The position numbers were made by a program, and so were the translations under genes. A model generated the notes under the pieces. That model was not told the origin of the DNA. It was given only the letters and a program-made list of their open reading frames with translations, and searched no databases. Positions 4,415-38,989 of a stretch of 41,357 nt of DNA are shown here, piece by piece; position 1 is the stretch's first letter, and each line of letters begins with the position of its first letter. This DNA comes from Candidatus Aegiribacteria sp. (GTDB lineage: Bacteria; Fermentibacterota; Fermentibacteria; Fermentibacterales; JCC-6): positions 1-41,357 of the forward strand of contig JAIORS010000117.1 in the NCBI GenBank assembly GCA_021108005.1, read 5' to 3'.

Positions 4415-6334
4415 ATGTGTGGAATCGCCGGAATAATCTGTCTGAATTCAAGACTGACTGAAACCGATATTGAATCAGGCAAAAAAATGACCTCCATTCT
4501 CCGCCATCGCGGGCCGGACGATCAGGGGTTTATCCATGACGAGAATTGTTTCCTGGGAAACACAAGATTAAGCATTATTGACCTGTCTCCACAGGCAAAT
4601 CTTCCAATGCGTAACGAATCCGGCAGTGTCTGGCTTGCATACAACGGTGAGATCACTAATTTCAGATTGCTTCGCGAGCAGTTCCGGTTGGATGAGAAGT
4701 ACATTTTCAGAACCTCTTCTGATACAGAAGTGCTGCTGCATCTTTACGAAGAACTTGGAATAGAGTGTCTTGACCACCTTTCAGGAATGTTTGCGTTCAC
4801 CTTGTACGACAGAATCAGAAAAAAAGCCTTCATAGTCAGGGATTTTTATGGAACACGGCCGTTGTTCTGGCTAACAATGAACAACAGGCTATACTTCTCA
4901 TCCGAGATCAAATCATTCATGCAGATCCCTGAATTCCAACCACGCGTGAATGAGGAGGCAATTTTCCATTACTTCTCTCTGGCCTACATTCCGGGAACAC
5001 TGACAGCCTTCCAGGGAGTAAATGAGCTTGACGGATCACATCTTATTGAACTTGACCTTGATAATCCGTCTGATCCATCCCCCAGAGAGTACTACACTAT
5101 AGGATTCAACCCGGACTACGAAATGACAATGGAAGAAGCGGAAGAGGGATTCTATCGGGCAATACTGGGAGCAGTCGACAGGAATCTTATCTCCGATGCG
5201 CCTGTAGGAACCACTCTTTCGGGAGGGCTGGACAGCAGTTCCATCCTTGGTCTTTCCCGCGAATTGGGCAAGGGTAACGAACTTCATTCCTTCTCTCTTA
5301 AAATAAACGAGAAGAGTTTTGATGAGTCTTCCTATCAAAGGGCTATGGCGAAGTATGCCGGCACTATTCACCACGAAATACCGGTTAATCCCGATGATGT
5401 GAAGAAGAACCTTGTTCGGCAGATGGCATACATGGATGAGCCAATCGGTGACGGTTCCGCAATACCTTTCCTGCTTCTATCCGCGGAAGCCCGGAAATAT
5501 GTGAAGGTGCTTCTCTCCGGTGAGGGCGGTGATGAGATTTCAAACGCGTACGAAACACATATGGCCAATCACATCTCGCGTTTGTACAGAAAATTTGTTC
5601 CATCGTTCATACGTACGGTAAATCTGAAACTGGCGGGTATGCTGCCTGTATCGTTCAACAAACTGAGTCTTGAATTTCTCGCGAAACGGTTCACAAGAGG
5701 AGCCGAGCTTCCAGCCCCGGAAGCTCATCTTTACTACAGACATGTTCTTGACAGATCAGAGAAGCTTGATCTGATGAACTCGGCAGAGAACTTTCCTCAC
5801 ACTGACACGTTCTTCTCGGAACTGTTCAACTCACTTGATTATAGAGATGAGCTGGACAGACTATCGCAGATCGACATGAAATATTTCTTCATAGGAGACC
5901 TTATGCAGAAGAACGACAGGATGTTTATGGCCAATTCGGTGGAAGCAAGATTTCCATTCATGGACAGAAAAGCAGTTGAATTCTTCACCACGATTCCCTC
6001 GAAGTACAAGATCAGAGGACTGACAAGACGATACATTGAGAAAAGGGCTATGAAAAGAGTGCTGCCGCCGGTAATCCATCGAAGGCAGAACTTCGGCATA
6101 GAACTTCCTTATTCTATCTGGTTCGAAGATTCATTAGCTCAGCTCGGGCGTGATTATTTCACGCGGGAAAGAATTGAGCGAACAGAAATATTGAATTGCG
6201 AACATGTACGAGGTTTATGGACGGATCATCTTGCCAGAAAGCGTGATAACGGCAGAACTCTCTGGTGCATACTGAACTTCATGATCTGGTTTGAGATGTT
6301 CATATACAATTCTGATTTCAGGGACTACATGTAA
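4415..6334 (+). CDS. asnB: Glutamine-dependent asparagine synthetase-like amidotransferase (copy 1)
   Basis: A 639-residue class II amidotransferase. The N-terminal glutaminase has the catalytic Cys2 right after Met, which fixes the start, then Arg51 in RLSIID, the oxyanion N77-G78-E79 and D103 in SDTEVLL. The C-terminal synthetase domain has the PP-loop SGGLDSS at 269-275 and a later SGEGGDE. It hydrolyses glutamine and uses the ammonia to amidate an adenylated carboxylate. Around residue 148 the usual G-x-K-P-L is GTRPLFW, a Lys-to-Arg change. It is a paralogue of the gene at 9899 and stands in a glycan-type cluster, so the substrate may be a sugar acid or glycan-linked carboxylate instead of free aspartate. 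RBS is CAGGGAG. It converges on the GT-C-like gene with a 19-nt gap. Confidence 0.9.
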   Translation: MCGIAGIICLNSRLTETDIESGKKMTSILRHRGPDDQGFIHDENCFLGNTRLSIIDLSPQANLPMRNESGSVWLAYNGEITNFRLLREQFRLDEKYIFRTSSDTEVLLHLYEELGIECLDHLSGMFAFTLYDRIRKKAFIVRDFYGTRPLFWLTMNNRLYFSSEIKSFMQIPEFQPRVNEEAIFHYFSLAYIPGTLTAFQGVNELDGSHLIELDLDNPSDPSPREYYTIGFNPDYEMTMEEAEEGFYRAILGAVDRNLISDAPVGTTLSGGLDSSSILGLSRELGKGNELHSFSLKINEKSFDESSYQRAMAKYAGTIHHEIPVNPDDVKKNLVRQMAYMDEPIGDGSAIPFLLLSAEARKYVKVLLSGEGGDEISNAYETHMANHISRLYRKFVPSFIRTVNLKLAGMLPVSFNKLSLEFLAKRFTRGAELPAPEAHLYYRHVLDRSEKLDLMNSAENFPHTDTFFSELFNSLDYRDELDRLSQIDMKYFFIGDLMQKNDRMFMANSVEARFPFMDRKAVEFFTTIPSKYKIRGLTRRYIEKRAMKRVLPPVIHRRQNFGIELPYSIWFEDSLAQLGRDYFTRERIERTEILNCEHVRGLWTDHLARKRDNGRTLWCILNFMIWFEMFIYNSDFRDYM

Positions 6335-6353
6335 TTCAGAAATGTAACCGTCT

Positions 6354-7715
6354 TTACCAATTTTCCCTGATGAATGGGGAATTCATCGTTGAAGCAAAAA
6401 TTCCGGTTTCCACACGAATCATATGAACTATGTATAAGCTGAACTTCATGCGTTCCTCGACGGGACCATGATTCATCCGATGTGCCCATCCCGGAAACCG
6501 GGAAAAGATGTTTTCTTCGGAGTAAACGGGACCCTCTTCGGAGGACACCGCATACATCGCTATTTCATGCATTTCTATCATCGGTGCTGAGATCCGCCTG
6601 GTCACTCTGATCGACCAGACCGCCGAAATAGAAAGAACGATAATAAGAACGCTGAATGTTAACAGCTTGAATACTATATTCCGATTCTTTACGTACTTAT
6701 CAAATAGGTAAACTGCGCTTCCGGCCATAGCGAGTGAGATCCACAACCAGAAACCCCATAGAAATGAGTCCTGAATCCAGAAAAAAGGAAACGGAAAAAT
6801 GAAAATACTGAATGAGAACGCTCCAAATCTTATTGCCCCTGGACATTTTCTGGAGAAAACGGCTGTAATGACTGCAAGAGCAGTAATTGCACAAACCGCG
6901 AACGGATTGAGATTCCAGACTGGCGGCAGAGGGAAACCCATCTGGATCAGTATGGACTGAAGTCGGAAATAATTCAATCCTAAATTGAGCCCGTCAGAGT
7001 CTATGGCAATACTGAAGTCAGCAATGCTCCGCAACACGACAAACATAACAATCAGGAAGAGAAGACCTGACCATAGCATACGATCGGATTTGACTGTTTC
7101 CTTTATTGAGCGTTTTTTTACCAGGATACTCCAGGCAGGAAGAAGCAGACAGTAAAAGATACCCGTGTCTTTTGAGAGTGTAGACAGAATTACAAAAAGC
7201 AGGGTAAGTGTGAAAAGAAGTTTCCGGTGTTCATTTTTTATGAAAGACATATCGTAAGTGAAGAGCGCCGCAATGGTAAACAGTGTAACCAGGCGATCGT
7301 TTCTTCCATATATCTTTAACAGAGACATGCATTGCGAAGGATGAACTGTCCAAAGGCAGACAGCGATGGCGGCGGTGAGAAAGCCGAATTGTCGTTTCAG
7401 CAGGAAAAATGCCAGGCAATAGCACACCCATGAAAGGAGGAGGTCTGTCACATGATACATTCGCGCGTCAGTATCCCAGAGTACATAATCAGACAGGATG
7501 GAAAGGCAGTAGATCGGTCTGAATATATCCCACTGTACCGATTCGGTAACTGCCCATGGAATGTTGTCATTCCCTTGAAACTGGAACGGAATAATGAAAC
7601 GACCGATGGTTTCCGTATCGAAAGGGGTCCTGAGAACGTCAGGTATAATAGTAGTTACAAAGAGCGGATAAAACATGAGAACGAGTAATATTAAAAATAT
7701 ATGGCGCTTAATCAC
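6354..7715 (-). CDS. Multi-pass membrane protein, GT-C glycosyltransferase-like (TMTC/PMT type)
   Basis: A 453-residue polytopic protein with about 9-10 hydrophobic segments. A first helix at residues 5-25 is followed by a long outside loop. HPSQ followed by GRNDRL near residues 127-142 resembles the HPxxxExxxxxxGRADLL segment of TMTC/DUF1736 proteins, and LSKDTG near 185 matches their later KExG motif. These families transfer sugars from polyprenyl-phosphate donors outside the membrane. The start is GTG with an upstream AGGGA. The gene overlaps the end of the flippase-like gene by 8 nt (7708-7715), so the two are translationally coupled and probably act together. Exact donor and acceptor are unknown. 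Confidence 0.7.
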   Translation of the reverse strand: MIKRHIFLILLVLMFYPLFVTTIIPDVLRTPFDTETIGRFIIPFQFQGNDNIPWAVTESVQWDIFRPIYCLSILSDYVLWDTDARMYHVTDLLLSWVCYCLAFFLLKRQFGFLTAAIAVCLWTVHPSQCMSLLKIYGRNDRLVTLFTIAALFTYDMSFIKNEHRKLLFTLTLLFVILSTLSKDTGIFYCLLLPAWSILVKKRSIKETVKSDRMLWSGLLFLIVMFVVLRSIADFSIAIDSDGLNLGLNYFRLQSILIQMGFPLPPVWNLNPFAVCAITALAVITAVFSRKCPGAIRFGAFSFSIFIFPFPFFWIQDSFLWGFWLWISLAMAGSAVYLFDKYVKNRNIVFKLLTFSVLIIVLSISAVWSIRVTRRISAPMIEMHEIAMYAVSSEEGPVYSEENIFSRFPGWAHRMNHGPVEERMKFSLYIVHMIRVETGIFASTMNSPFIRENW

Positions 7716-8721
7716 TTAATTCCCTGTTTCGGTTCTGCTTCGTGTCAAGCAGCTCTTTTGTGCTCCTGAAACCCAGCCCCAGGTAATGAAGGGCCATCAC
7801 CGACAGCAGGAGTGAATACACATTCATAAAGCCATGGTCAAGTACGGCTATAGTAAATGCGGTGCTTTCCGAGACACCGAATCCGGTGAGAAGCATAACC
7901 ATCATCCCTTCGTAGATTCCCAGACCATTTGGTGTTAATGGAAGGATCTTCGTTACAGTTGATAGCAGCATAACGAACGAAGTCCCGGCGAAGGAGAGCT
8001 TTACCCCGAAAACAAGAAGGAAGATGAAGAGGGTGAGAATATCAAATATCCAGACCAGCATCGATACGAGCAGAACCGTGAAGAGTCGTTCCGGGTTTTT
8101 CCTCATCTGCTCGGCAAGCTCGGTGACGGAGCTCCTTAGTTTTTTCAGCGGTCCTATCAGCATTTTCCGGAAGATGGAAGGATGGAAAACAAACAGCCAG
8201 CCGGTAAGAGCGAGAAGAAGCATCAGGACTGACATCGTAACGATATAGGAGAGATAGTTCGCTGCGATTGATCCGGAGACAAAAATAACACTGAACAGAG
8301 TCAGGAGTATCACGGCCGCAAGATCCATGGCTCTTACCAGGAAAGCCGCGAAGGTTCCTGAAGTGTAGTTCAGCATTTTCTTTTTGTGCAAGTAAATGAC
8401 TTTTATAGAATCTCCGAGTTTTGCGGGAATAATCATATTCGCCATATCAGCCACCAGCTCAATTCCAAGAGCTTCGAATAAACCTGTTTTAACTTTCAGC
8501 AGGGAGAGTATCATTCTGAAACGGATGCCGCGAAGCAGCCATGATATTGAATAAACTATGACGAGAGGAATAAGCACTATCGGCTTGACTTCCTGAAGGT
8601 TCTGCACGAAATGCTCAAATCCCGTTTTTGAGGCAATGAGGATAAGAATTGCCATTCCTGCAAGGGCAGAAAAGACATGCATTACGATTTTTCTTCTGCT
8701 GCTGTTCGAGTTTGAATGCAT
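7708..8721 (-). CDS. UPF0104 / lysylphosphatidylglycerol synthase-type transmembrane protein
   Basis: A 337-residue membrane protein with about 8 helices. The segment SWLLRGIRFRMIL near residue 60 and the pairing of PAKLGDSIKVIYL (about 97-110) with PLTPNGLGIYEGMM (about 258-271) are typical of the UPF0104/LPG_synthase_TM (AglD, MprF flippase-like) family. Members are proposed to move lipid-linked intermediates across the membrane or to form part of glycolipid synthesis. It is first in a two-gene unit with the GT-C-like gene and diverges from the family 2 glycosyltransferase. No aminoacyl-transferase (MprF catalytic) domain is attached. No clear Shine-Dalgarno precedes the ATG. Confidence 0.8.
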   Translation of the reverse strand: MHSNSNSSRRKIVMHVFSALAGMAILILIASKTGFEHFVQNLQEVKPIVLIPLVIVYSISWLLRGIRFRMILSLLKVKTGLFEALGIELVADMANMIIPAKLGDSIKVIYLHKKKMLNYTSGTFAAFLVRAMDLAAVILLTLFSVIFVSGSIAANYLSYIVTMSVLMLLLALTGWLFVFHPSIFRKMLIGPLKKLRSSVTELAEQMRKNPERLFTVLLVSMLVWIFDILTLFIFLLVFGVKLSFAGTSFVMLLSTVTKILPLTPNGLGIYEGMMVMLLTGFGVSESTAFTIAVLDHGFMNVYSLLLSVMALHYLGLGFRSTKELLDTKQNRNRELSD

Positions 8722-8965
8722 ACTATCTATTCAGCGGGTGTTTGTTCACGTATATTTCTATGATCTCATTTGTATTTTTTGTCAATACGGTCATCATCTC
8801 AATTCAATTGAGTAATATAAATAAACCAAAAAGCAATCACTCAAAAGAGAGATGATGATTGCCAGGGGTAAATTGACACAATCCGGTGGCAATGTCCAGA
8901 GGGCTGTTATGAATCCTTACGGGTGATTATGTTTTTGTACTGTAAATCAAACAGTCTGGAGAAGG
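8722..8965. promoter_or_regulatory. Divergent regulatory region of the glycan cluster
   Basis: This 244-nt AT-rich stretch separates two divergent units. A minus-strand promoter is plausible: TTGACA at 8785-8780, a 19-nt spacer and TAGAAA at 8760-8755. Two dyads lie here: CTCAATT-C-AATTGAG at 8798-8812 (perfect) and GCAATCA/TGATTGC arms at 8833-8839 and 8856-8862 with a 16-nt gap. A plus-strand TTGACA at 8873-8878 lacks a -10 at normal spacing. Confidence 0.45.
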
Positions 8966-9895
8966 ATGTTAAAAATCAGTGTAATCGTTCCCGCCTTTAA
9001 CGAGGCTCAATCTGTAAAACAGACGATTCTCGGTATTCAGCGAATACTCGGCAGTTCGGATTTATCAGGAGAGATACTCCTGATCGATGACGGTTCCACC
9101 GATGAAACAGCCGAACTGGCGGGAAAGACCGGCGCGAAGGTTCTTAGGCATCAGAACAATCTGGGATATGGTGCTTCGCTTAAAACGGGTATCAGGAACG
9201 CCAGCTACGATACCATTGTAATAACCGATGCTGACAGTACATACCCGATTGATATGATACCCGAACTTCTGAATCGCATGGAGAAAACCGATGCGGATAT
9301 GGTTGTCGGCGCGAGAACCGGTGATAAGGTAAATGTGCCGCTTACCCGAAAACCATTCAAGTGGGTTGTTCGCCGTCTGGCCCAGTACATCGTCAAAAGA
9401 CCTATCCCGGACTTGAACTCCGGGCTGAGGGTGTTTCGAAAAGATCTGGCTCTCCGCTATTACAACATATACCCGAACGGCTTCTCATTCACTTCGACAA
9501 TTACAGTTGCTTCAATGTGTGATAATTTCATAGTGGAGTATGTACCGATCAATTATCATCAACGTGAAGGCAAATCCAAGATCGTCCCGGCAGATTTTTT
9601 TTCGTTCGTTATGCTTGTTCTGCGCTTATCAGTTCTTTTCAGACCTCTCAGAGTGTTTATTCCAGTATCGATTTTCTGTTTTTCAGTTGGCTTCCTGAAG
9701 CTTATTCATGATGTTATTATGACTATCGGCATTTCCCGCGATACAGGGGCGAGCCTGCTGGTTCTCCCGGTTGTCTCATCCACAGCAGTAACTTTCCTTC
9801 TCGCGTCTCTGCAGATCCTGCTTGTTGGAATGGTTGCTGAAGCTCTTTCAAAGCGCAGCTTCAGAGCTGAATTCATTCACGAAAAAAAAGACTGA
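8966..9895 (+). CDS. Family 2 glycosyltransferase, dolichol/undecaprenyl-phosphate sugar type
   Basis: A 309-residue GT-A enzyme. The nucleotide-binding ISVIVPAFNEA is at residues 4-14, LLIDDGSTDET is near 40-50, and the metal-binding DAD in TDADSTYPID is near 90. NSGLRVFR near 153 is the acceptor-loop signature of DPM1/GtrB-like transferases. Two helices fill the C-terminus (about 220-245 and 265-290), as in membrane-anchored polyprenyl-phosphate glycosyltransferases. It likely loads a sugar from a nucleotide donor onto a polyprenyl-phosphate carrier, which the GT-C-like protein at 6354 could use. GGAGAAGG directly precedes the ATG. It is the first gene of a three-gene unit with the second amidotransferase and the FAD enzyme. 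Confidence 0.88.
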   Translation: MLKISVIVPAFNEAQSVKQTILGIQRILGSSDLSGEILLIDDGSTDETAELAGKTGAKVLRHQNNLGYGASLKTGIRNASYDTIVITDADSTYPIDMIPELLNRMEKTDADMVVGARTGDKVNVPLTRKPFKWVVRRLAQYIVKRPIPDLNSGLRVFRKDLALRYYNIYPNGFSFTSTITVASMCDNFIVEYVPINYHQREGKSKIVPADFFSFVMLVLRLSVLFRPLRVFIPVSIFCFSVGFLKLIHDVIMTIGISRDTGASLLVLPVVSSTAVTFLLASLQILLVGMVAEALSKRSFRAEFIHEKKD

Positions 9896-9898
9896 TAT

Positions 9899-11848
9899 AT
9901 GTGTGGCTTTGCAGGGGGATTGCTCTTCAATTCCCAGATGTTCCATAATGCTGAGCTCCTTTCAAGAATGGGAACCGTTCTGGCTCACAGGGGACCGGAT
10001 GACAAAGGACAGATGATTCAAGGTCCCTGCGGACTCGTTCATCGAAGGTTGAGCATCATAGATCTGAGCAGATCAGGTCATCAGCCCATGAGCAATGAGG
10101 ATGAAAGCATCTGGATTGTCTATAACGGCGAGGTATACAACTTCCTGGAACTCCGAAAACAATACAATCTCGACGCTGAAGGGCACATTTTCCGATCCAG
10201 AACTGATACAGAGGTTCTTATACACCTTTACGAAACAATGGGAGATTGTTTTCTTGATGTTCTGAATGGCATGTATTCAATTGCCCTGTGGGACGGAAGG
10301 AAGAGGAAACTCCTTCTTGCCAGGGATCCCTTCGGAATAAAACCCCTGTTTTACACCACAACAAAAGAAGGTTTCTGGTTCGCTTCCGAGATAAAGGCGC
10401 TTCTTGAAGTAAACGGAGTGGAAAGGGAGCCTTCTCTGCAGGCCCTGCATCATTTCCTTTCCTTCGATTATGTGCCCGGTTCTCTAACTCCGTTCGAGAA
10501 CATTTACGAACTGCTGCCCGGTAGAGCCATGTGGATTGACTGGGAAACGAAAGTAAGGTCCGAGTGGCGGTTTTTCGACTTTAATTACACAGAGGACGAA
10601 TCGATATCCTCCGAATTTGCCTGCGCCCACAGCAGAGAACTGCTTCAGAAGGCTGTAGAGCGTACCCTTATCTCAGATGTTCCGGTAGGTGTGATGCTTT
10701 CGGGAGGAATGGATTCCAGCGCCCTTACAGCCCTGATGGCCCGTGCAAAGGGAAGCAGTGACTTTCATACTTTCTCCCTGGGCTTTGAAGACAGCAGCTT
10801 TGATGAATCGGATTATGCGGAGATCGTGGCGAAAGTTGTTGGTACAAAACATCACAGAATAGAAGTAACACCCGAAAAAGTTGCTGATCTCCTTCCCCGG
10901 TACCTTGCCCACATAGACGAACCTTACGGAGACGGTTCAGCTATCCCCACATGGCTTCTGGCGGAAAAAGCTTCGGACCTTGTCACGGTGCTTCTGTCCG
11001 GTGAGGGAGGCGACGAGGTATATTCAGGTTACGATACCCATGCTGCCTGCAAAGCCAGGAAACTCTATAGAAAAACCGTGCCGCGTTTCATAAGGCAGAA
11101 AGTTATCAGATATCTGGCTGAAAGACTTCCCGTATCCCACAGGAAACTGAGTTTTGAATTCAAGGCGAAAAGATTCACAGAGGGTACCGAACTGGATACT
11201 CCAGGCTCACACTATTTCTGGCGGGTTGTTCTATCGGCTGATGCCAAGCGGAAAGTGCTGAGCAATCCTGATCGTTTCGATGAATTCCCGGACTCTTCAC
11301 AGTTCTTCAGGGATATATATACTGGTTGTAATGCTGAATCCGACCTGAACAGACTGCTTTGTATCGATGCTTCCTGTCACCTTCCCCATGATCTTATGGT
11401 AAAGAACGACAGAATGACAATGGCCCACTCCATAGAGGCAAGAGTTCCCTTCACCGATGTGGAACTGTTCCGTTTTCTCTCCAGCGTACCTGTCAAGTAC
11501 AAGTTTCCTGGAATGAACAGGAAATATCTGCTGAGAAATTCCATGAAGGATCTTCTTCCCGCCTCCATCATCAAAAAGAAAAAAGTCGGCCTGGAGATGC
11601 CCTATTCCAGGTGGCTGCGGAAAGAACTGAAAGATATAGCTCTGGACTATCTCTGTCCTTCCAGACTTTCCTCTACCGGGCTTTTCAATGCAATGGGAGT
11701 TGAGAAACTCTGGCAACAGCACGACAGGGGGGAAATGGACCATGGCAGAGCCCTCTGGGGGATACTGAATTACATGATGTGGCATGAAATGTACATCTCC
11801 ACCACGAATTACAAATCCTACATCAATCCGGGAGTTGCACGCCTGTGA
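9899..11848 (+). CDS. asnB: Glutamine-dependent asparagine synthetase-like amidotransferase (copy 2)
   Basis: A 649-residue class II amidotransferase. Catalytic Cys2 (MCGFAGG), R50 in RRLSIID, oxyanion N76-G77-E78 and D103 in RTDTEVL are present, then the PP-loop SGGMDSS at 268-274 and SGEGGDE. The KPLFY segment is canonical (RDPFGIKPLFY), unlike copy 1. The start is fixed by the need for Met-Cys even though no good RBS is seen 3 nt after the preceding stop, so translation is probably coupled. The stop overlaps the GTG of the FAD gene (GTGA). Its operon with a glycosyltransferase suggests amidation of a glycan component, but ordinary asparagine synthesis cannot be excluded. Confidence 0.9.
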   Translation: MCGFAGGLLFNSQMFHNAELLSRMGTVLAHRGPDDKGQMIQGPCGLVHRRLSIIDLSRSGHQPMSNEDESIWIVYNGEVYNFLELRKQYNLDAEGHIFRSRTDTEVLIHLYETMGDCFLDVLNGMYSIALWDGRKRKLLLARDPFGIKPLFYTTTKEGFWFASEIKALLEVNGVEREPSLQALHHFLSFDYVPGSLTPFENIYELLPGRAMWIDWETKVRSEWRFFDFNYTEDESISSEFACAHSRELLQKAVERTLISDVPVGVMLSGGMDSSALTALMARAKGSSDFHTFSLGFEDSSFDESDYAEIVAKVVGTKHHRIEVTPEKVADLLPRYLAHIDEPYGDGSAIPTWLLAEKASDLVTVLLSGEGGDEVYSGYDTHAACKARKLYRKTVPRFIRQKVIRYLAERLPVSHRKLSFEFKAKRFTEGTELDTPGSHYFWRVVLSADAKRKVLSNPDRFDEFPDSSQFFRDIYTGCNAESDLNRLLCIDASCHLPHDLMVKNDRMTMAHSIEARVPFTDVELFRFLSSVPVKYKFPGMNRKYLLRNSMKDLLPASIIKKKKVGLEMPYSRWLRKELKDIALDYLCPSRLSSTGLFNAMGVEKLWQQHDRGEMDHGRALWGILNYMMWHEMYISTTNYKSYINPGVARL

Positions 11849-13251
11849 AATATAAAATTGCTGTTCTCGGAGCAGGCCCGGCGGGATTGTGGACAGCTCT
11901 TTCGCTTCTGGAGAAATTCAATGATCTTGAGATAACGGTTATCGAGAAAGAAAACTGCCCCGGGGGGATCACGGCGAGTTTTCAGTACAAAGGAATGATC
12001 TTTGACTACGGAAGTCACAGACTCCATCCCGCAGCTGATCCCCGGCTGTTGAATAAAATTCGCAAGATGCTCGGGAGCGATCTTCTAGAAAGACCCCGCA
12101 ACGGGAGAATATGGCTCGAAGGAAGGTTCATCGCCTTTCCATTGAATCCCGTCAATCTCCTGTTCAATCTTCCCTTTTCTTTTTCATCCGGTGTAATGCT
12201 CGATTCTCTGGTATCCTCTTTCAGGCGTAAAAAAGAAGGTATTTCATTTGAAGATACCCTCCTCTCCGGGCTTGGGAAAACCATCAGCAGCAGATTCTAT
12301 TTCCCCTATGCAAGAAAACTCTGGGGGCTTCCCCCCTCAAAACTTTCTCCCGTACAGGCCAGAAAGCGGATCGCGTCCGGAAGTATCGGAAAGATGATTG
12401 GAAAAGCGCTCTCTTCCATCTCGGGATCTTCGCGAAAGACAGGCATCTTCTACTATCCCAGGCAGGGTTTCGGTCAGATAGCTCAGGTAACGGCCGCGAC
12501 CGTAGAGAAACTTGGAGCAAATATCATATTCAACGCAGAAGTTGTCTCAATTATTCCCCCTGCAGAAGAACAGATGGGGACTGTTGTTATTTCCGATGGT
12601 AGAAAGATAAACACGGATTTTATCTTCTCAACCATTCCCGTTACCGAATTTGCGGGACTGCTTGATCCTGCGGTACCCCGCCTGGTTTCCGACGCAGCGA
12701 AAAAACTGTCCTTCAGATCCATGATCTTCTGCATACTGCAACTGCCCATTTCGCAATACACACCGTTTGACGCGCACTACTTCCCAGGTCCTGAAACATG
12801 TTTTTCAAGGCTTTCCGAACCAAAGAACTACAGCCTGGCGAATACTCCCTCTGATCGCACCGGCCTATGTTTTGAGATACCCTGCGGCGATGAAGATGAA
12901 TTATGGGAACTGAGCAATGAAGAAATTCTCAGGATGGTCCTTGATGACCTGAAGAAAACAGATCTTCCCGTACCGGAAGTGAAGGATTTTACCGTTCGCA
13001 GGAAGAAGAATGTATACCCGGTTTATGACCAAAGCTTTTCAAGTCATCTCGACATCATCGAACGGCATCTGAGAACCTTCAGCCGAATGGTATCTCTTGG
13101 AAGACAGGGACTGTTCGTGCATGACAATACCCATCATACAATCGATATGGGAATTGCCGCCGTGGACTGCCTCTCCCCGGCTCTGAAATGGGACGCCGAC
13201 AGATGGGCTCTTCACAGAGAAAAATTCAACAGTCATATTGTTGTTGACTGA
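11845..13251 (+). CDS. FAD-dependent amine-oxidase/protoporphyrinogen-oxidase-like enzyme of a glycan cluster
   Basis: A 468-residue flavoprotein. The dinucleotide-binding motif GAGPAGLWTALSLLE starts at residue 9, followed by VIEKENCPGG. DYGSHRLHP near residue 53 matches the GGHRF segment of the UDP-galactopyranose-mutase/amine-oxidase-like group found in polysaccharide loci. NTHHTIDMGIAAVD near the C-terminus is the closing FAD contact. It may oxidise or isomerise a nucleotide or lipid-linked sugar, but the reaction is not known. The GTG start overlaps the preceding stop by 4 nt. Heme synthesis (HemY) is less likely because there are no heme genes nearby. Confidence 0.78.
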   Translation: MKYKIAVLGAGPAGLWTALSLLEKFNDLEITVIEKENCPGGITASFQYKGMIFDYGSHRLHPAADPRLLNKIRKMLGSDLLERPRNGRIWLEGRFIAFPLNPVNLLFNLPFSFSSGVMLDSLVSSFRRKKEGISFEDTLLSGLGKTISSRFYFPYARKLWGLPPSKLSPVQARKRIASGSIGKMIGKALSSISGSSRKTGIFYYPRQGFGQIAQVTAATVEKLGANIIFNAEVVSIIPPAEEQMGTVVISDGRKINTDFIFSTIPVTEFAGLLDPAVPRLVSDAAKKLSFRSMIFCILQLPISQYTPFDAHYFPGPETCFSRLSEPKNYSLANTPSDRTGLCFEIPCGDEDELWELSNEEILRMVLDDLKKTDLPVPEVKDFTVRRKKNVYPVYDQSFSSHLDIIERHLRTFSRMVSLGRQGLFVHDNTHHTIDMGIAAVDCLSPALKWDADRWALHREKFNSHIVVD

Positions 13252-13619
13252 TTTGTACCCGGCATCATAGACCTACTCCCGCGCCCGGGTAGTAGATACT
13301 GATCAACGTCAAGCCATATTGTCTGCCGTATTACCTCACTGAATAATACTATCACCGACAGTTAAAATTCCCTGATTTCTGAAATTGAATTAGGCTATCC
13401 GGACTTCTATAGAAAGGAGGTGAAGGACTAGGAATAAATGTTGACCGGTAATAGTTCCGGTGGTATTTTTGTTCAAATGAAAAACTGAGAAAACGGGAAC
13501 TGAGAAGTCATATTTGGCGCTGATTCTGATATTACGAGAAATCCAGTTTCCTTATGTTTTACTATCGGATATAAAAAGTGTTTTAAGGCTTGAAGTTAAA
13601 AATAGAAAAGGGGAATATA
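13252..13619. other. Gene-free stretch before the beta-helix gene
   Basis: No credible gene. It holds a short GC-rich hairpin (CTACTCCCG/CGGGTAGTAG, 13273-13295) about 20 nt after the FAD gene, with no T tract. An isolated AGAAAGGAGGTGA lies at 13411-13423. A 16-codon frame from ATG 13438 begins 15 nt after that site, too far for normal initiation. The 3' half becomes AT-rich, matching the following gene. Confidence 0.5.
13411..13423 (+). other. Orphan perfect anti-Shine-Dalgarno complement
   Basis: AGAAAGGAGGTGA is an exact complement of the conserved 3' tail of bacterial 16S rRNA. No start codon lies at usable spacing: the only one, the GTG within the site, opens a frame of three codons. 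It could be a ribosome-standby site, a leader element or chance. Confidence 0.45.
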
Positions 13620-15305
13620 ATGAAGATTACTGCTTTTGTATTAGTTATACTAAATATCAGTATATTATTTGCATCAACCTACTACGTTTCAACGACTGGC
13701 AATAATTCAAATGATGGCTCAATTAATTATCCATGGGCTACACCTGGATACGGTTCAAAGCATATCTCAGGAGGAGACAGTTTAATAGTATTGTCTGGTG
13801 ATTACATTATGAATTTGTTTTACGTAGATATGATCACCCCTCCCTCCGGATCAAGTGGATCTCCAACAGTCATAATAGGGCAAGGTGTAACTAAACCTAA
13901 AATGCTTGGAGCAGGATCATTGTTTTCATGTATCCAATTAGAGGATTCCACATCGTTTGTAGAGATAATAAATCTGGAATTGACGAGTTTAATAGATACT
14001 CCATATACAGGAGGTTCCAGAGGAGGTTTTCAAGGCAATTCCTTTATCAATAATATACTATTGGAAGACTTGGAAATTCACAGAACTGAAATGATGGGGA
14101 TTGATCTGGGTGGTGATGCGGAAAACATAATTATTAACAGATGCAATATTCATCATACAGCTTATACATGTATCGGCGGGCCAGCAGCTATTGGTGATGG
14201 CTGGGTAAATGTTCAGATTGACAGTTGCTATCTGGGTTATGCCGGTCATTTTTACCAGGGAGAAGATACTCTTTCTATATGGGATAGACCTGATGGTGTT
14301 GGCTTTGAAGAATCTGAAGGACCGATTGAAATAAGATATACATTTGTTGAACATACTAATGGTGATGGATTGGATTCTAAATCGAGAAGAACTCATATTC
14401 ATCATTGCATTGTTTCAAATTGTTATGCCGATGGAATTAAACTATGGGGAGACAGTAGTATTGTTGAAAATACTCTGGTTTATGGGATAGGTGATAATAA
14501 CAATCTTTCTACTCCCTGGTGTGCTTTGGTTATCGATACATATGATGTTAATGCCTACTTTAAAGTTACTAACTGTACTTTCTGGGATTCGCCTGAAAGA
14601 CCTTCCCATTATTTAGCAACCATTCAATATGATTGTCCTACTACACCAATTACATTGACTATGAGGAATAATATATTTTGTGGTAATAAGAGAGTTTATT
14701 GCCAGCCAATAGCTAATATTATCGCAAACAATAATATATTCTATGTAATTGATGAAAGTATTCAGATTACAGCGAATGGACAGGATTATGATAGTTTGAA
14801 TATTGGGAACCTTGGATCAGATAATACGTATGGGGATCCTGAATTTGTTTTCATACCACCATGGGGACAAGATGGCGATTTTCACTTAGATCAATATTCA
14901 TCGGGTGTTGATACAGGTATTGATACGGGTTTATTGGATGATCTTGATTATTTCGCGAGACCATACAATGGCGTATATGATATCGGCTGTTATGAATGGC
15001 ATCCATCTACAGGTGTTAGTGAAAGAAATGGAAATTCTTCAACTGCTGCGGAAAAGACGATGTACATTTCTCCTAATCCAGCCGGAGCTACAGTCAGAAT
15101 AGAGATGAACGGCGACTCTGTTCCATCTGAAATCGCCATCTATGATATTCTGGGAAGGCTTATACTAAAAATTGCATCGCAGAATCAGCAATTAAACTCT
15201 TTTCTGTGGAACACGGATGGCTGTAATCCCGGAGTCTACTTCGCAGTGGCCAATAACAACGAATCAGTTATTTCATCAGGAAGGATAGTTCTTCTGGAGC
15301 GGTAA
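13620..15305 (+). CDS. Secreted right-handed beta-helix protein with Por/T9SS-type sorting domain
   Basis: A 561-residue protein when started at the ATG at 13620, which has AAAAGGGGA upstream. An ATG 30 nt earlier would spoil the signal peptide. Residues 1-19 are a signal peptide ending ILFAS. YYVSTTGNNSNDGS directly after it is the entry motif of pectate-lyase-like parallel beta-helix proteins, and the middle has regular rungs with Asn and His ladders. DLDYFARPYNGVYDIGCYEW near 450 is the usual end-cap of such proteins. The last 80 residues, from SPNPAG through YDILGR to GVYF, match the type IX-like C-terminal sorting domain (TIGR04183). The body is clearly AT-richer than its neighbours, a sign of transfer. 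It is probably an exported adhesin or polysaccharide-acting enzyme; no catalytic site can be named. Confidence 0.82.
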   Translation: MKITAFVLVILNISILFASTYYVSTTGNNSNDGSINYPWATPGYGSKHISGGDSLIVLSGDYIMNLFYVDMITPPSGSSGSPTVIIGQGVTKPKMLGAGSLFSCIQLEDSTSFVEIINLELTSLIDTPYTGGSRGGFQGNSFINNILLEDLEIHRTEMMGIDLGGDAENIIINRCNIHHTAYTCIGGPAAIGDGWVNVQIDSCYLGYAGHFYQGEDTLSIWDRPDGVGFEESEGPIEIRYTFVEHTNGDGLDSKSRRTHIHHCIVSNCYADGIKLWGDSSIVENTLVYGIGDNNNLSTPWCALVIDTYDVNAYFKVTNCTFWDSPERPSHYLATIQYDCPTTPITLTMRNNIFCGNKRVYCQPIANIIANNNIFYVIDESIQITANGQDYDSLNIGNLGSDNTYGDPEFVFIPPWGQDGDFHLDQYSSGVDTGIDTGLLDDLDYFARPYNGVYDIGCYEWHPSTGVSERNGNSSTAAEKTMYISPNPAGATVRIEMNGDSVPSEIAIYDILGRLILKIASQNQQLNSFLWNTDGCNPGVYFAVANNNESVISSGRIVLLER

Positions 15306-15350: not shown

Positions 15351-15376
15351 AATGGGGTCAAATCTTTCCTCTTGAC
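15351..15376 (-). repeat. REP-like terminal repeat, left
   Basis: AATGGGGTCAAATC followed by TTTCCTCTTGAC. It is inverted relative to the right-hand copies, with one substitution and one deleted base. The transposase stop codon (TCA at 15358-15360, RC TGA) lies inside it, so the repeat encodes the last residues M-S-R-G-K-I of the transposase. Confidence 0.75.
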
Positions 15377-16371
15377 ATTTGAATCAACTGATCACTTAAT
15401 TTTTCAAATCTTTTTTTCAATTGTGGTTCATTCTCCAGCTTGATATGCAATCTCTTCCTGGCCTGACTAACTGAACTATAGTCAATCCCTCCCAGCAGCC
15501 TCCCGATTTCAGGTTGGGTTATCCGACAGAAACGGTACAGCAATTCCATCAGCATCGATCTTTCCAAAGATCTTTTCCCACGCTGGCATATATCATCCCT
15601 GCTCTTATTGATCAGTTTTGTAAAACGATTGATCAACTCTTCTGGCTTGAGTTCTTTTCTTAATTCCTTCAGGGCGGGTTGCTCCCTTTCGGATGCTTTC
15701 ATATTCAGAAATCTTTCTTTAATCGATTGAACGAAGTCAGCTCCTCCAACAATCCCAATCCCTTTACCTGATTCCAGTGGATTTTCTGTATCCTGATCAA
15801 TACCCGATTCTACGAATTTTTGGTACTCCTGCCTGCCCTTGCGGTTATCTCCACCAATATAGTCCAGAACATTGCTGTAATTTACAAAATCCCTTCTTTT
15901 CAGCACCGATAAATATCCCGAGAAACTACTGGCTTCGTAATTGAGGAGTATTCCACGTTTTTCATCGATTGATTTTTCAGCATAAGCTTTAATCCGAATC
16001 GGATTCAAATGAATGTATCGGGATACAGATAGAAGATAATTATCAGAATCGATCAGAAAAGCCTTGTATCTTCCCTGATAAAGATGCCCCACCCGGTCAT
16101 GTCTTCTATTGAAAGAAGAGGTATAGGAAATATTAAAATGACGCATAAATTCAGACAGGTTTCCATCCGGAGTGGTTACCAGTAAATGGAAATGGTTCGG
16201 CATACATACATATGTCAGAAGAGATACATTATAGATCTCCAGGGAGAGCGAAAGTTTTTCAAGAAGAGCCTTTTGATCCTGTGCATCTGCAAATATCAGC
16301 TTTCTTTCGTTCCCACGGCAGGTGACATGATAATAGGCACCCGGATACTGGATTCTTAAAGATCTAACCAT
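15358..16371 (-). CDS. REP-associated tyrosine transposase (Y1_Tnp/IS200-like) with DnaA-type C-terminal domain
   Basis: A 337-residue single-strand transposase. GAYYHVTCRGNER at about 11-23, the metal-binding MPNHFHLLV (HUH, His-Phe-His) at about 57-65, and GRYKAFLID with YLLSVSRYIHLNPIR further on are the Y1 signatures; the tyrosine nucleophile lies in the YLLSVSRYIH segment. The last 100 residues include CRITQPEIGRLLGGIDYSSV, a DnaA domain IV-like helix-turn-helix often fused to long RAYTs. RAYTs move REP sequences and are often domesticated. The gene is intact and ends inside the left repeat. Confidence 0.88.
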   Translation of the reverse strand: MVRSLRIQYPGAYYHVTCRGNERKLIFADAQDQKALLEKLSLSLEIYNVSLLTYVCMPNHFHLLVTTPDGNLSEFMRHFNISYTSSFNRRHDRVGHLYQGRYKAFLIDSDNYLLSVSRYIHLNPIRIKAYAEKSIDEKRGILLNYEASSFSGYLSVLKRRDFVNYSNVLDYIGGDNRKGRQEYQKFVESGIDQDTENPLESGKGIGIVGGADFVQSIKERFLNMKASEREQPALKELRKELKPEELINRFTKLINKSRDDICQRGKRSLERSMLMELLYRFCRITQPEIGRLLGGIDYSSVSQARKRLHIKLENEPQLKKRFEKLSDQLIQMSRGKI

Positions 16372-37845: not shown

Positions 37846-38143
37846 TTCTCTCCGTTTCAAAAGTATCAACTTAATAGTTTCGGTTAATGGAATGAATATG
37901 TCAAGGGTTATAATCAAAACCCACCCGGAAAACACAAATCCTCTCGATATTCTGTTTTCTAAAGGTGTATATGAATACATTACATATCTCATCGATACAA
38001 ATTTAGTCAGTTTTACTTCACTAATCTTTACTAAGTGGCTTGACACAATTAATTTCTTTAATAGATTAATTTATGCATAGAGGGGGTTTCGTATTTTTAT
38101 TTCACTTGTTTCATTATAACACTAATCCGAAAGGGGTATGGAA
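37846..38143. other. Divergent region between kinase and recombinase
   Basis: Nearly 300 nt, AT-rich, no gene. On the minus strand a TTGACA (RC at about 37903-37908) lies 22 nt from TATTAA, too far for a standard promoter. On the plus strand TATAAC at 38115-38120 could be a -10 for the recombinase. Confidence 0.4.
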
Positions 38144-38989
38144 ATGACGGATTATGTTGAACAGACGAGAAAGGTACTGAGAACAGCCGGGCGAAGTCCT
38201 AAAACGGCTAACAGCTATCTATCTCATATCCGACGGCTTGAGAACACATACGGAAATGTGACTGAAAGCCTCGATGAGGACACTCTGAGAAAATACCTTG
38301 AGGATCTTGTTGATGAAGGAAAATCACTTTCCTACATTAACCAGGCCCAAAGTGCTATCAGGTTCATGTACAAGCATGTGCTTTCCAAGGATAACCCTCT
38401 TCCCGGTCCAGGTCTCATTTCGAAGAAGATTCCTCTCCATGGCATCTTCAGCAGAGATGAGATCAAACAGATATTCGCCAATGTACATGAGCTGAAATAC
38501 AGGCTTGCCCTTATGCTTATCTACTCTTCAGGACTGAGGGTGGGTGAAGCAACACATCTTCTCAGGAACGCTGTCGATTTTGATAGCATGGTAATTCATG
38601 TTAACGACCAGGACAAGGAATTCATCAGAGATACTATACTGGCAAATTCGATAGCCGATATTCTCAAGTACTACATTGAAACGAGAACAGACGATTCTCC
38701 ATGGATGTTCCCCGGCAGAGGCAAAACCAACTGCATCTCCCCCAGAACAATCCAGAGAGCCTTCGCCGAGGCGATGCTGGCCGTTGGTATCGAGAAACGG
38801 GCAACACTGGGATGGCTCAGGCACAGCTTCGCTGTTCATATGCTTGAGGACGGTATAGATAGAAAGCTGGTGCGAAGCCTTCTGGGAATTACCACTCCTT
38901 CAATGATATCTCCCTACATGAAGCTTGCCGAAAAAAGAAGTGCACTCAGGGTTAACAGCCCCGCGGACAGGTTCCTCTTAAAGAAGTAA
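38144..38989 (+). CDS. Tyrosine recombinase (XerC/D-like), both catalytic histidines replaced
   Basis: A 281-residue protein with SAM-like N-domain (about 3-85) and catalytic domain. The start at 38144 is preferred over 38138 because AAGGGG lies 7 nt before it. Catalytic Arg-I is in YSSGLRVGE, and a candidate Lys is in DQDKEFIR. The second box reads GWLRHSFAVH where HxLRHSFATH is normal, so the His two residues before Leu is Gly. The later LLGHxS is LLGITTP, replacing His/Trp by Ile. Arg-II and the nucleophile Tyr (SPYMK) remain. It is full-length and not frameshifted. It could be an inactive or conditionally active relative. Confidence 0.85.
   Translation: MTDYVEQTRKVLRTAGRSPKTANSYLSHIRRLENTYGNVTESLDEDTLRKYLEDLVDEGKSLSYINQAQSAIRFMYKHVLSKDNPLPGPGLISKKIPLHGIFSRDEIKQIFANVHELKYRLALMLIYSSGLRVGEATHLLRNAVDFDSMVIHVNDQDKEFIRDTILANSIADILKYYIETRTDDSPWMFPGRGKTNCISPRTIQRAFAEAMLAVGIEKRATLGWLRHSFAVHMLEDGIDRKLVRSLLGITTPSMISPYMKLAEKRSALRVNSPADRFLLKK

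What the first reader, a model, noticed from the sequence alone, without database searches (positions are those of the whole stretch)
4415..13251. Two paralogous asparagine-synthetase-like genes in a glycan cluster
Both copies have intact glutaminase and PP-loop residues, and they flank a flippase-like protein, a GT-C-like enzyme, a polyprenyl-phosphate-type GT2 and an FAD enzyme. Copy 2 is in an operon with the GT2. This suggests amidation of glycan carboxylates (uronic-acid amides) by two enzymes with different substrates.
Basis: partly seen in the sequence, partly recalled or inferred. Interest (0 to 1): 0.55.

Follow-up and report, generated by a model that had tools for sequence, protein, structure and literature searches.

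The report
Glycan cluster with two amidotransferase-like enzymes
A conserved bacterial gene cluster appears to build an unusual cell-surface sugar that carries an amide group, and one of its two sister amide-forming enzymes has lost a lysine that the other relatives examined all keep, so it may do something different.

Summary
Two AsnB-like proteins (ASN1 4415-6334, ASN2 9899-11848; 42% identical) lie among a flippase-like protein, a GT-C, a polyprenyl-phosphate-type GT2 and a flavoenzyme, which lies downstream of ASN2, outside the flanked stretch. In the 42 genomes held of this small phylum (own included), ASN2 and the flavoenzyme orthologue occur in the same 14, with GT2 beside ASN2 in 13. 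The flavoenzyme is UDP-galactopyranose-mutase-like (best structural match T. cruzi UGM, Z 35; 7 of 10 active-site residues kept). ASN1 (11 of 42 genomes) is next to the flippase gene or one gene from it wherever the contig reaches (9 of 9), and was not found in five ASN2 genomes. ASN1 and ASN2 are sister clades, far from E. coli AsnB, but do not group with the uronamide enzyme WbqG. ASN2 looks canonical. ASN1 departs at 9 of 57 columns conserved elsewhere; at AsnB K449 it has Asn in 9 of 9 rows, against Lys in 139 of 139 other rows, under purifying selection. Best reading: ASN2 amidates a uronic-acid-type sugar on the way to a polyprenyl-phosphate donor; ASN1 is a neofunctionalised paralogue. 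'Two amidases with two substrates' is partly supported. No substrate is shown.

The parts
4415..6334 (+). ASN1 (copy 1), 639 aa AsnB-like; glutaminase and PP-loop residues intact, synthetase lysine (AsnB K449) is Asn559
6354..7715 (-). GT-C-fold membrane protein, 453 aa, no Pfam or NCBIfam hit; probable polyprenyl-phosphate-sugar-dependent glycosyltransferase
   Evidence: no family hit; AlphaFold model pLDDT 85.5; VIA Z about 19 to STT3/PMT and 18.5 to ArnT
7708..8721 (-). flippase-like LPG_synthase_TM protein, 337 aa (PF03706, TIGR00374); overlaps the GT-C gene by 8 bases
8966..9895 (+). polyprenyl-phosphate-type GT2, 309 aa (AglJ/PpgS/DPM-synthase-like), first gene of the triad
9899..11848 (+). 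ASN2 (copy 2), 649 aa AsnB-like, canonical residues
11845..13251 (+). UDP-galactopyranose-mutase-like flavoenzyme, 468 aa; overlaps ASN2 by 4 bases

Best explanation
The block is a glycan-building module, probably exchanged between genera. Its core is a run of three genes: a GT2 that loads a sugar onto polyprenyl phosphate, a glutamine-dependent amidotransferase (ASN2) and a UDP-galactopyranose-mutase-like flavoenzyme. ASN2 most likely turns the carboxylate of a uronic-acid-type sugar (as nucleotide sugar or lipid-linked) into an amide through an acyl-adenylate, and the flavoenzyme most likely interconverts pyranose and furanose forms of a nucleotide sugar, so that the GT2 makes a polyprenyl-phosphate donor of an amidated, perhaps furanose, sugar. 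The flippase-like protein, found with ASN1, and the GT-C would move that donor across the membrane and transfer the sugar. ASN1 is an ancient sister of ASN2 that has kept the glutaminase and ATP-loop residues, lost the synthetase lysine and is under purifying selection, so it has a different, unknown role, probably in the same pathway. Shown: gene order, conservation, families, predicted folds, residues, tree. Inferred: every chemical step and every substrate.
For: ASN2 and the UGM-like orthologue occur in the same 14 of 42 genomes, adjacent in the 12 with an unbroken contig. GT2 lies beside ASN2 in 13 of 14; in G014 the contig starts inside ASN2. A relative of this GT2 also lies within 100 bases of an AsnB-like gene in 4 of 80 loci named in other phyla (L076, L104, L120, L139). 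Flavoenzyme: match to T. cruzi UGM over nearly the whole length (phmmer 1.3e-17; profile 1.5e-32), model Z 35.0 to UGM against 29.4 for the best protoporphyrinogen oxidase row, and H58, R175, Y312, R322, Y391, R420, N428, invariant in the 13-row alignment, match UGM residues named in PMC4192007 (passages). GT2: dolichol-phosphate mannose synthase and ArnC-type enzymes are the best PDB hits. GT-C fold. ASN2 and ASN1 both score higher on TIGR03108 than on TIGR01536, as does WbqG; WbqG is stated to be required for uronamide formation (PMC7468200, passages). Nucleotide-sugar dehydrogenase genes are in the genome. ASN1.
Against: ASN1/ASN2 do not form a clade with WbqG. TIGR03108 bits (412.8, 496) are below its cut-off of 816.9, though WbqG's 528.5 is too; for ASN1 the margin over TIGR01536 is only 6 bits. 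No uronate-making gene lies among the six; the nucleotide-sugar dehydrogenase pair is on another contig and such genes are in 40 of 42 genomes, so they are not tied to the block. Three of the ten UGM residues in the table seen are not kept (Val63, Asn201; Tyr429 is His426). Only 1 of 80 named loci showed a flavoenzyme relative (28% over 274 aa) and none a flippase or GT-C relative, so the whole block is not seen outside the phylum. ASN1 was found without ASN2 in G043 and G051, on contigs of about 3.1 kb each. No genome of 42 passes the GatB cut-off and 4 of 42 have AsnA, so a role of one copy in making free asparagine cannot be excluded in some genomes.
Confidence: 0.5

Rival explanations
1. 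Two amidotransferases with different sugar substrates: ASN1 and ASN2 each amidate a different uronic acid of the same glycan.
For: Both window copies keep the glutaminase residues and PP-loop; both are conserved as separate clades and under purifying selection.
Against: ASN1 has Asn in place of the lysine matching AsnB K449 in 9 of 9 rows that cover it and departs at 9 of 57 columns conserved elsewhere, ASN2 at 1. In AsnB and beta-lactam synthetase this lysine is catalytic (recalled; searches gave no paper seen to say so).
Confidence: 0.22
2. One of the copies is the cell's asparagine synthetase and its place in the block is incidental.
For: Both pass the broad NCBIfam model asn_synth_AEB. AsnRS is over its cut-off in 35 of 42 genomes and AsnA in 4 of 42, and the own genome has GatDE genes while no genome passes the GatB cut-off, so asparagine probably has to come as a free amino acid.
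Against: Both lack the TTIRAS segment of AsnB and stand outside the AsnB clade. 6 of 24 good genomes have no AsnB-like match at 1e-30 and no AsnA, yet have AsnRS, so asparagine need does not predict the block. The own genome has a third full AsnB-like gene on C38.
Confidence: 0.12
3. The copies amidate peptidoglycan or its precursors (LtsA / B. subtilis AsnB type diaminopimelate amidation).
For: The window also holds MreB, MreC, PBP2 and RodA-like genes; AsnB-like enzymes with this role exist (recalled).
Against: The cell-shape genes are over 11 kb away and no relative of them turned up in the neighbourhoods compared; peptidoglycan is widespread while the block is in 14 of 42 genomes. No reference sequence of this type was in the tree.
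Confidence: 0.05
4. ASN1 belongs to a second pathway with the radical SAM protein beside it (peptide- or sugar-modifying), and only ASN2 belongs to the UGM/GT2 pathway.
For: A GT2 plus radical SAM pair (c5-c4) lies next to ASN1 in G003, G010, G041 and G042, and a c5 end in G043; in an Elusimicrobiota contig a radical SAM frame ends 4 bases before the ASN1 relative, and a GT2 lies further downstream.
Against: c4-c5 is absent beside ASN1 in the window and in G026, G028 and G029, where ASN1 still lies beside flippase, GT2 and ASN2. The Elusimicrobiota radical SAM does not match c4 at 1e-6.
Confidence: 0.11

Closest known systems
WbpS / WbqG uronamide-forming amidotransferases (P. gingivalis PGN_1234, P. 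aeruginosa WbpS, E. coli O121 WbqG)
   Same: WbqG is AsnB-like, 630 aa, with glutaminase and PP-loop residues, TIGR03108 scored above TIGR01536, no TTIRAS segment, in a glycan cluster; PGN_1234 and WbpS from PMC7468200 passages
   Different: Separate clade; the block has a polyprenyl-phosphate-type GT2 and a UGM-like enzyme where the O121 cluster has sugar-dehydrogenase, Wzx and Wzy genes; ASN1 lacks the lysine that WbqG keeps
Eukaryotic-type UDP-galactopyranose mutase (Trypanosoma cruzi, Aspergillus fumigatus)
   Same: Fold over nearly the whole length (Z 35.0, 435 aligned, 21% identity), 7 of 10 active-site residues
   Different: Tyr429 is His426, Val63 and Asn201 are not kept; substrate unknown; in a run with an amidotransferase gene
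Polyprenyl-phosphate sugar / GT-C pathways (ArnC-ArnT, dolichol-phosphate mannose synthase-PMT, mycobacterial arabinan; pathway roles recalled)
   Same: GT2 of the DPM-synthase/ArnC type plus a GT-C and a flippase-like protein
   Different: Amidotransferase and UGM-like enzyme in the same block; GT-C in no Pfam or NCBIfam family
T. forsythia O-glycan cluster asnB beside wecC and wecB (PMC6120980, passages)
   Same: AsnB-like gene in a glycan cluster of a T9SS bacterium
   Different: Uronate-making genes beside it; no UGM-like enzyme named in the passages seen
E. coli asparagine synthetase B
   Same: Domain order, glutaminase residues, PP-loop, E348 and D351 equivalents
   Different: No TTIRAS segment in the copies; separated in the tree by a long, fully supported branch

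Membership tests
WbpS/WbqG-type uronamide amidotransferase | glutaminase Cys1 and Gln-binding residues plus PP-loop | tested here: met
   both window copies
WbpS/WbqG-type uronamide amidotransferase | groups with WbqG in a tree | tested here: not met
   WbqG in a separate supported clade; WbpS and PGN_1234 themselves were not in the tree
WbpS/WbqG-type uronamide amidotransferase | TIGR03108 over its curated cut-off (816.9 bits) | tested here: not met
   ASN1 412.8, ASN2 496.0; WbqG itself 528.5, so the cut-off is stricter than the function
WbpS/WbqG-type uronamide amidotransferase | uronate-making genes in the same cluster | tested here: not met
   none among the six genes; dehydrogenase pair on contig C169
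WbpS/WbqG-type uronamide amidotransferase | amidation of a sugar carboxylate | not testable with these tools
   needs enzyme assay
Asparagine synthetase (AsnB) | TTIRAS segment (aspartate binding, recalled) | tested here: not met
   EPxGDGSAIP in both window copies
Asparagine synthetase (AsnB) | groups with E. coli AsnB | tested here: not met
Asparagine synthetase (AsnB) | over cut-off of NCBIfam TIGR01536 | tested here: met
   406.8 and 471 bits against 267.1; WbqG passes too, so the model is broad
Asparagine synthetase superfamily | synthetase lysine at AsnB K449 | tested here: not met
   not met by ASN1: Asn in 9 of 9 rows with the region; ASN2 meets it: Lys in 12 of 12
UDP-galactopyranose mutase | fold and active-site residues | tested here: inconclusive
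   fold met: Z 35.0 to 4dsh; 7 of 10 residues kept, 3 not
UDP-galactopyranose mutase | NCBIfam TIGR00031 over cut-off | tested here: not met
   22.7 bits against 303.75; the closer relation is to the eukaryotic type
UDP-galactopyranose mutase | pyranose-furanose mutase activity | not testable with these tools
   needs enzyme assay
GT-C glycosyltransferase | GT-C fold | tested here: met
   the best-ranked rows are STT3/PMT/ArnT/ALG12 at Z 18-19; Foldseek alone gave E 3e-3 at best
LtsA-type diaminopimelate amidotransferase | groups with LtsA | not tested
   no reference sequence obtained
T9SS linking-sugar (Wbp/Vim) pathway | VimA and VimE homologues | not tested
   VimA/VimE not searched; T9SS sortase-like matches in 42 of 42 genomes, block in 14 of 42

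The most novel reading that the evidence does not exclude
ASN1 is a neofunctionalised asparagine-synthetase-fold enzyme that has traded the otherwise conserved synthetase lysine for asparagine and uses glutamine-derived ammonia and ATP for a chemistry other than plain amidation (for example a different nucleophile or acceptor, or as an obligate partner of ASN2), inside a pathway that makes an amidated furanose-type sugar on polyprenyl phosphate.
Probability: 0.3. Interest if true: 0.68.

Novelty: new variant of a known kind. Interest (0 to 1): 0.5.

Why it matters
Amidated uronic acids occur in O-antigens and in the sugar that anchors T9SS cargo in P. gingivalis (PMC7468200). A gene run that pairs an amidotransferase with a UGM-like flavoenzyme and a polyprenyl-phosphate GT2 was not seen in the listings and passages of the paper searches made (listings, plus passages of a few papers). 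If right, it points to a sugar donor not yet described, and ASN1 offers a natural test of what the conserved lysine of the asparagine-synthetase fold is for.

Tried and rejected
Simple paralogue redundancy was rejected: ASN1 and ASN2 are separate fully supported clades. Both clades hold members of two families of the order, and an Elusimicrobiota row joins ASN1, so the split is old unless transfer explains this. Pseudogene status of ASN1 was rejected: dN/dS about 0.05, the lowest of the eight gene pairs compared (synonymous sites near saturation, so rough). The FAD gene as protoporphyrinogen oxidase or carotenoid desaturase was rejected as the first choice: structure and residues favour UGM, but a PPO Z of 29 is not far off. 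The block as a requirement of the T9SS was rejected: every one of 42 genomes has a sortase-like match of E 8.4e-49 or better (over the curated cut-off in 10 of 42; at the loose threshold of 0.001 two control genomes also match below the cut-off), the block is in 14 of 42. N-acetylglutaminylglutamine amidotransferase and lasso cyclase models scored lower. Paper searches on the lysine and 85 on aspartate-binding residues gave no paper seen to settle the point; searches returned no paper. The named genome scan (capped at the best 80) showed no close orthologue of the block: of the 80 loci, many short, 11 had a GT2 hit at 1e-5, 1 a flavoenzyme hit and none a flippase or GT-C hit. The Fisher value used 43 genomes by mistake; one search repeats it with 42.

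Rows dropped: of 147 candidate AsnB-like frames plus the two window proteins, 93 rows entered the first tree (7 frames of other or partial enzymes left out, the rest of the omissions hand-picked among the named loci); the second tree left out 36 more, long branches and near-copies (57 rows). One search left out 8 rows (the 7 frames and the truncated G043 ASN1). ASN1 of G050 and G051, the N-terminal piece of G029 ASN1, and ASN2 of G029 and G040 did not enter the trees, being too short or broken.
Full report
What is there. The stretch 4415-13251 holds six intact genes. ASN1 (639 aa) and ASN2 (649 aa) each carry GATase and Asn_synthase domains and are 42% identical. Between them lie, on the minus strand, a GT-C-fold protein and a flippase-like LPG_synthase_TM protein that overlap by 8 bases, and, on the plus strand, a GT2 that ends 3 bases before ASN2 starts. 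The flavoenzyme begins inside the last 4 bases of ASN2. So there are two likely transcription units: flippase to GT-C, and GT2-ASN2-flavoenzyme. ASN1 is convergent with the GT-C gene.

Conservation. The window lies in a 3.2 Mb, 231-contig genome. Of its phylum 42 genomes are held, the own one included. ASN2 is full-strength (983 bits or more) in 12 of 42 genomes, in frame-shifted pieces in G040 and at a contig edge in G029, 14 of 42 in all. The flavoenzyme orthologue (330 bits or more; next best 220) is in 13, plus a fragment in G029: the same 14. It is adjacent to ASN2 in the 12 genomes with an unbroken contig; in G010 another contig starts with the ASN2 tail followed by the flavoenzyme. A Fisher test on 14/0/0/28 gives 1.9e-11, but the genomes are related and the genes linked, so this overstates the independence. 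GT2 is beside ASN2 in 13 of 14.

ASN1 is found in 11 of 42: eight in one block with ASN2, G050 on a separate contig, and G043 and G051, where ASN2 was not found. Where the contig reaches, ASN1 is next to the flippase gene (5) or separated from it by the GT-C gene (4), 9 of 9. In five ASN2 genomes ASN1 was not found (G013, G014, G020, G021, G040); three of these are 61 to 73% complete. A GT-C orthologue (150 bits or more) is in 12 of 42, in or within a few genes of the block in ten, on short contigs without block genes in G010 and G047. In G003, G010, G041 and G042 a further GT2 and a radical SAM protein, and in G010 and G042 also a PMT-like GT-C and a sulfatase-like protein, lie on the other side of ASN1. 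The block is thus modular: triad, then ASN1 plus flippase, then further genes.

Outside the phylum. In 80 loci named in other lineages (a capped list) a relative of the GT2 lies within 100 bases of the AsnB-like gene in four: L076 (Acidobacteria), L104 (Planctomycetes), L120 (Alphaproteobacteria) and L139 (Curvivirga). One locus has a flavoenzyme relative; none has a flippase or GT-C relative. The whole block was not seen there.

Tree. With 93 rows and, without long branches, 57 rows, ASN1 and ASN2 are each one clade and are sisters with full or nearly full support. An Elusimicrobiota MAG protein (L067, 50% identical to ASN1) joins ASN1. E. coli AsnB and its Alishewanella relative stand apart on a long branch. 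WbqG, the O121 enzyme, groups with other rows. In both clades the own genome and G010 group with G041/G042 of another genus to the exclusion of G003 of the own genus, which suggests transfer of the block between genera.

Residues. Glutaminase residues C1, R49, N74, E76, D98 and the PP-loop are kept in both window copies. The TTIRAS segment of E. coli AsnB is replaced by EPxGDGSAIP in both, similar to WbqG's EPFADSSQLP. At AsnB K449 139 of 150 aligned rows have Lys, 2 do not reach the column and 9 have Asn: the 8 ASN1 rows that cover it and L067. Of 57 columns conserved at 93% or more in 121 other rows, ASN1 departs at 9 and ASN2 at 1. dN/dS against G010 is 0.05 for ASN1 and 0.06 for ASN2 (rough because synonymous sites are near saturation). 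ASN1 is therefore not decaying; it has changed and then been held. That the lysine is catalytic in AsnB and beta-lactam synthetase is recalled; searches gave no paper seen to say so.

Flavoenzyme. The best solved relative is UDP-galactopyranose mutase of T. cruzi, by sequence and by model (Foldseek 2.2e-31; VIA Z 35.0, rmsd 3.1, 435 aligned); protoporphyrinogen oxidases follow at Z 29. From the printed alignment (read by hand) and the invariant columns of the 13-row alignment, the T. cruzi residues H62, R176, Y317, R327, Y395, R423 and N433 match H58, R175, Y312, R322, Y391, R420 and N428. Of the ten residues in the table of PMC4192007 (passages only) three are not kept: Val63, Asn201 and Tyr429 (His426 here, invariant). 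The mutase reading is favoured; the sugar is not known.

GT-C and GT2. P0003 has no family hit, but its model (pLDDT 85.5) has as its best structural matches STT3, PMT, ArnT and ALG proteins (VIA Z 18-19; Foldseek E values are weak, 3e-3 at best). The GT2 is closest to dolichol-phosphate mannose synthase and ArnC-type enzymes in the PDB.

Interpretation. ASN2 in a run with a UGM-like enzyme and a lipid-phosphate GT2 fits amidation of a sugar acid on the way to a polyprenyl-phosphate donor. The precedent is WbpS: deletion of P. gingivalis PGN_1234 left the T9SS linking sugar as the uronic acid instead of the uronamide, and WbpS and WbqG are called TIGR03108 members (PMC7468200, abstract and passages). 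ASN1, ASN2 and WbqG all score TIGR03108 above TIGR01536, while the third AsnB-like protein of the genome (C38) does the reverse; for ASN1 the margin is only 6 bits. The organism has T9SS sortase-like genes and a T9SS-tailed protein right after the block, so a link to the T9SS anchor is possible; but sortase-like matches are in 42 of 42 genomes and the block in 14, so it is not required.

Asparagine supply. GatB over the cut-off is in 0 of 42 genomes and AsnRS over the cut-off in 35 of 42, AsnA in 4 of 42. Six of 24 good genomes have neither AsnA nor an AsnB-like match at 1e-30. So free asparagine is probably needed and its source differs; a share of asparagine synthesis by these copies is not excluded.

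Limits. The genomes of the phylum are unnamed and many are fragmented; absence in a genome can be a gap. No activity has been measured. The interest score reflects a conserved, unusual gene set and a sharply defined residue loss in ASN1, set against an unproven substrate.

Noticed in passing
own genome contig C154, locus L193 1152-4484 (minus): GatD (498 bits, cut-off 310) and GatE (523 bits, cut-off 456) side by side in a bacterium; weak GatB-model hits are in 35 of 42 genomes of the phylum and none passes the GatB cut-off; only the own genome's hit was checked to be GatE. GatDE is held to be archaeal (recalled), so this deserves its own look.
   Followed up: partly
42 genomes of the phylum: Six of 24 good genomes have AsnRS but neither AsnA nor an AsnB-like match at 1e-30: possible asparagine auxotrophs.
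   Followed up: partly
window 13590-15305: T9SS-tailed beta-helix protein right after the block, in a stretch where G+C falls to about 0.38-0.39 against 0.42-0.50 elsewhere in the window.
   Followed up: no
window 15358-16371: REP-associated tyrosine-transposase-like protein (75.6 bits, cut-off 80) with a weak DnaA C-terminal match at its own C-terminus.
   Followed up: no
window 38138-38989: Tyrosine recombinase of the phage-integrase family.
   Followed up: no
own genome C38, locus L066 8614-10551: Third AsnB-like gene, next to a DUF354-like gene and a gene with weak GH88/GH127-like matches.
   Followed up: partly
loci L018-L024, L027, L160-L163, L171, L172, L186: Another AsnB-like group in 15 relatives has Gln (14) or Arg (1) instead of Glu at AsnB E76 in the glutaminase site.
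   Followed up: no
42 genomes of the phylum: Several genomes have two or more near-full-length T9SS sortase-like genes, some in tandem.
   Followed up: no
L067 1-6716 (Elusimicrobiota MAG): ASN1 relative (50%) 4 bases after a radical SAM frame, with a TPR protein and a GT2 downstream.
   Followed up: partly
L178 8102-10038 (G040): ASN2 in four pieces of different frame, GT2 in two; sortase hits of this genome are broken too, so sequencing errors are likely.
   Followed up: partly
L076, L104, L120, L139: AsnB-like gene within 100 bases of a relative of the window's GT2 in other lineages: the amidotransferase-GT2 pair may be a wider theme.
   Followed up: partly
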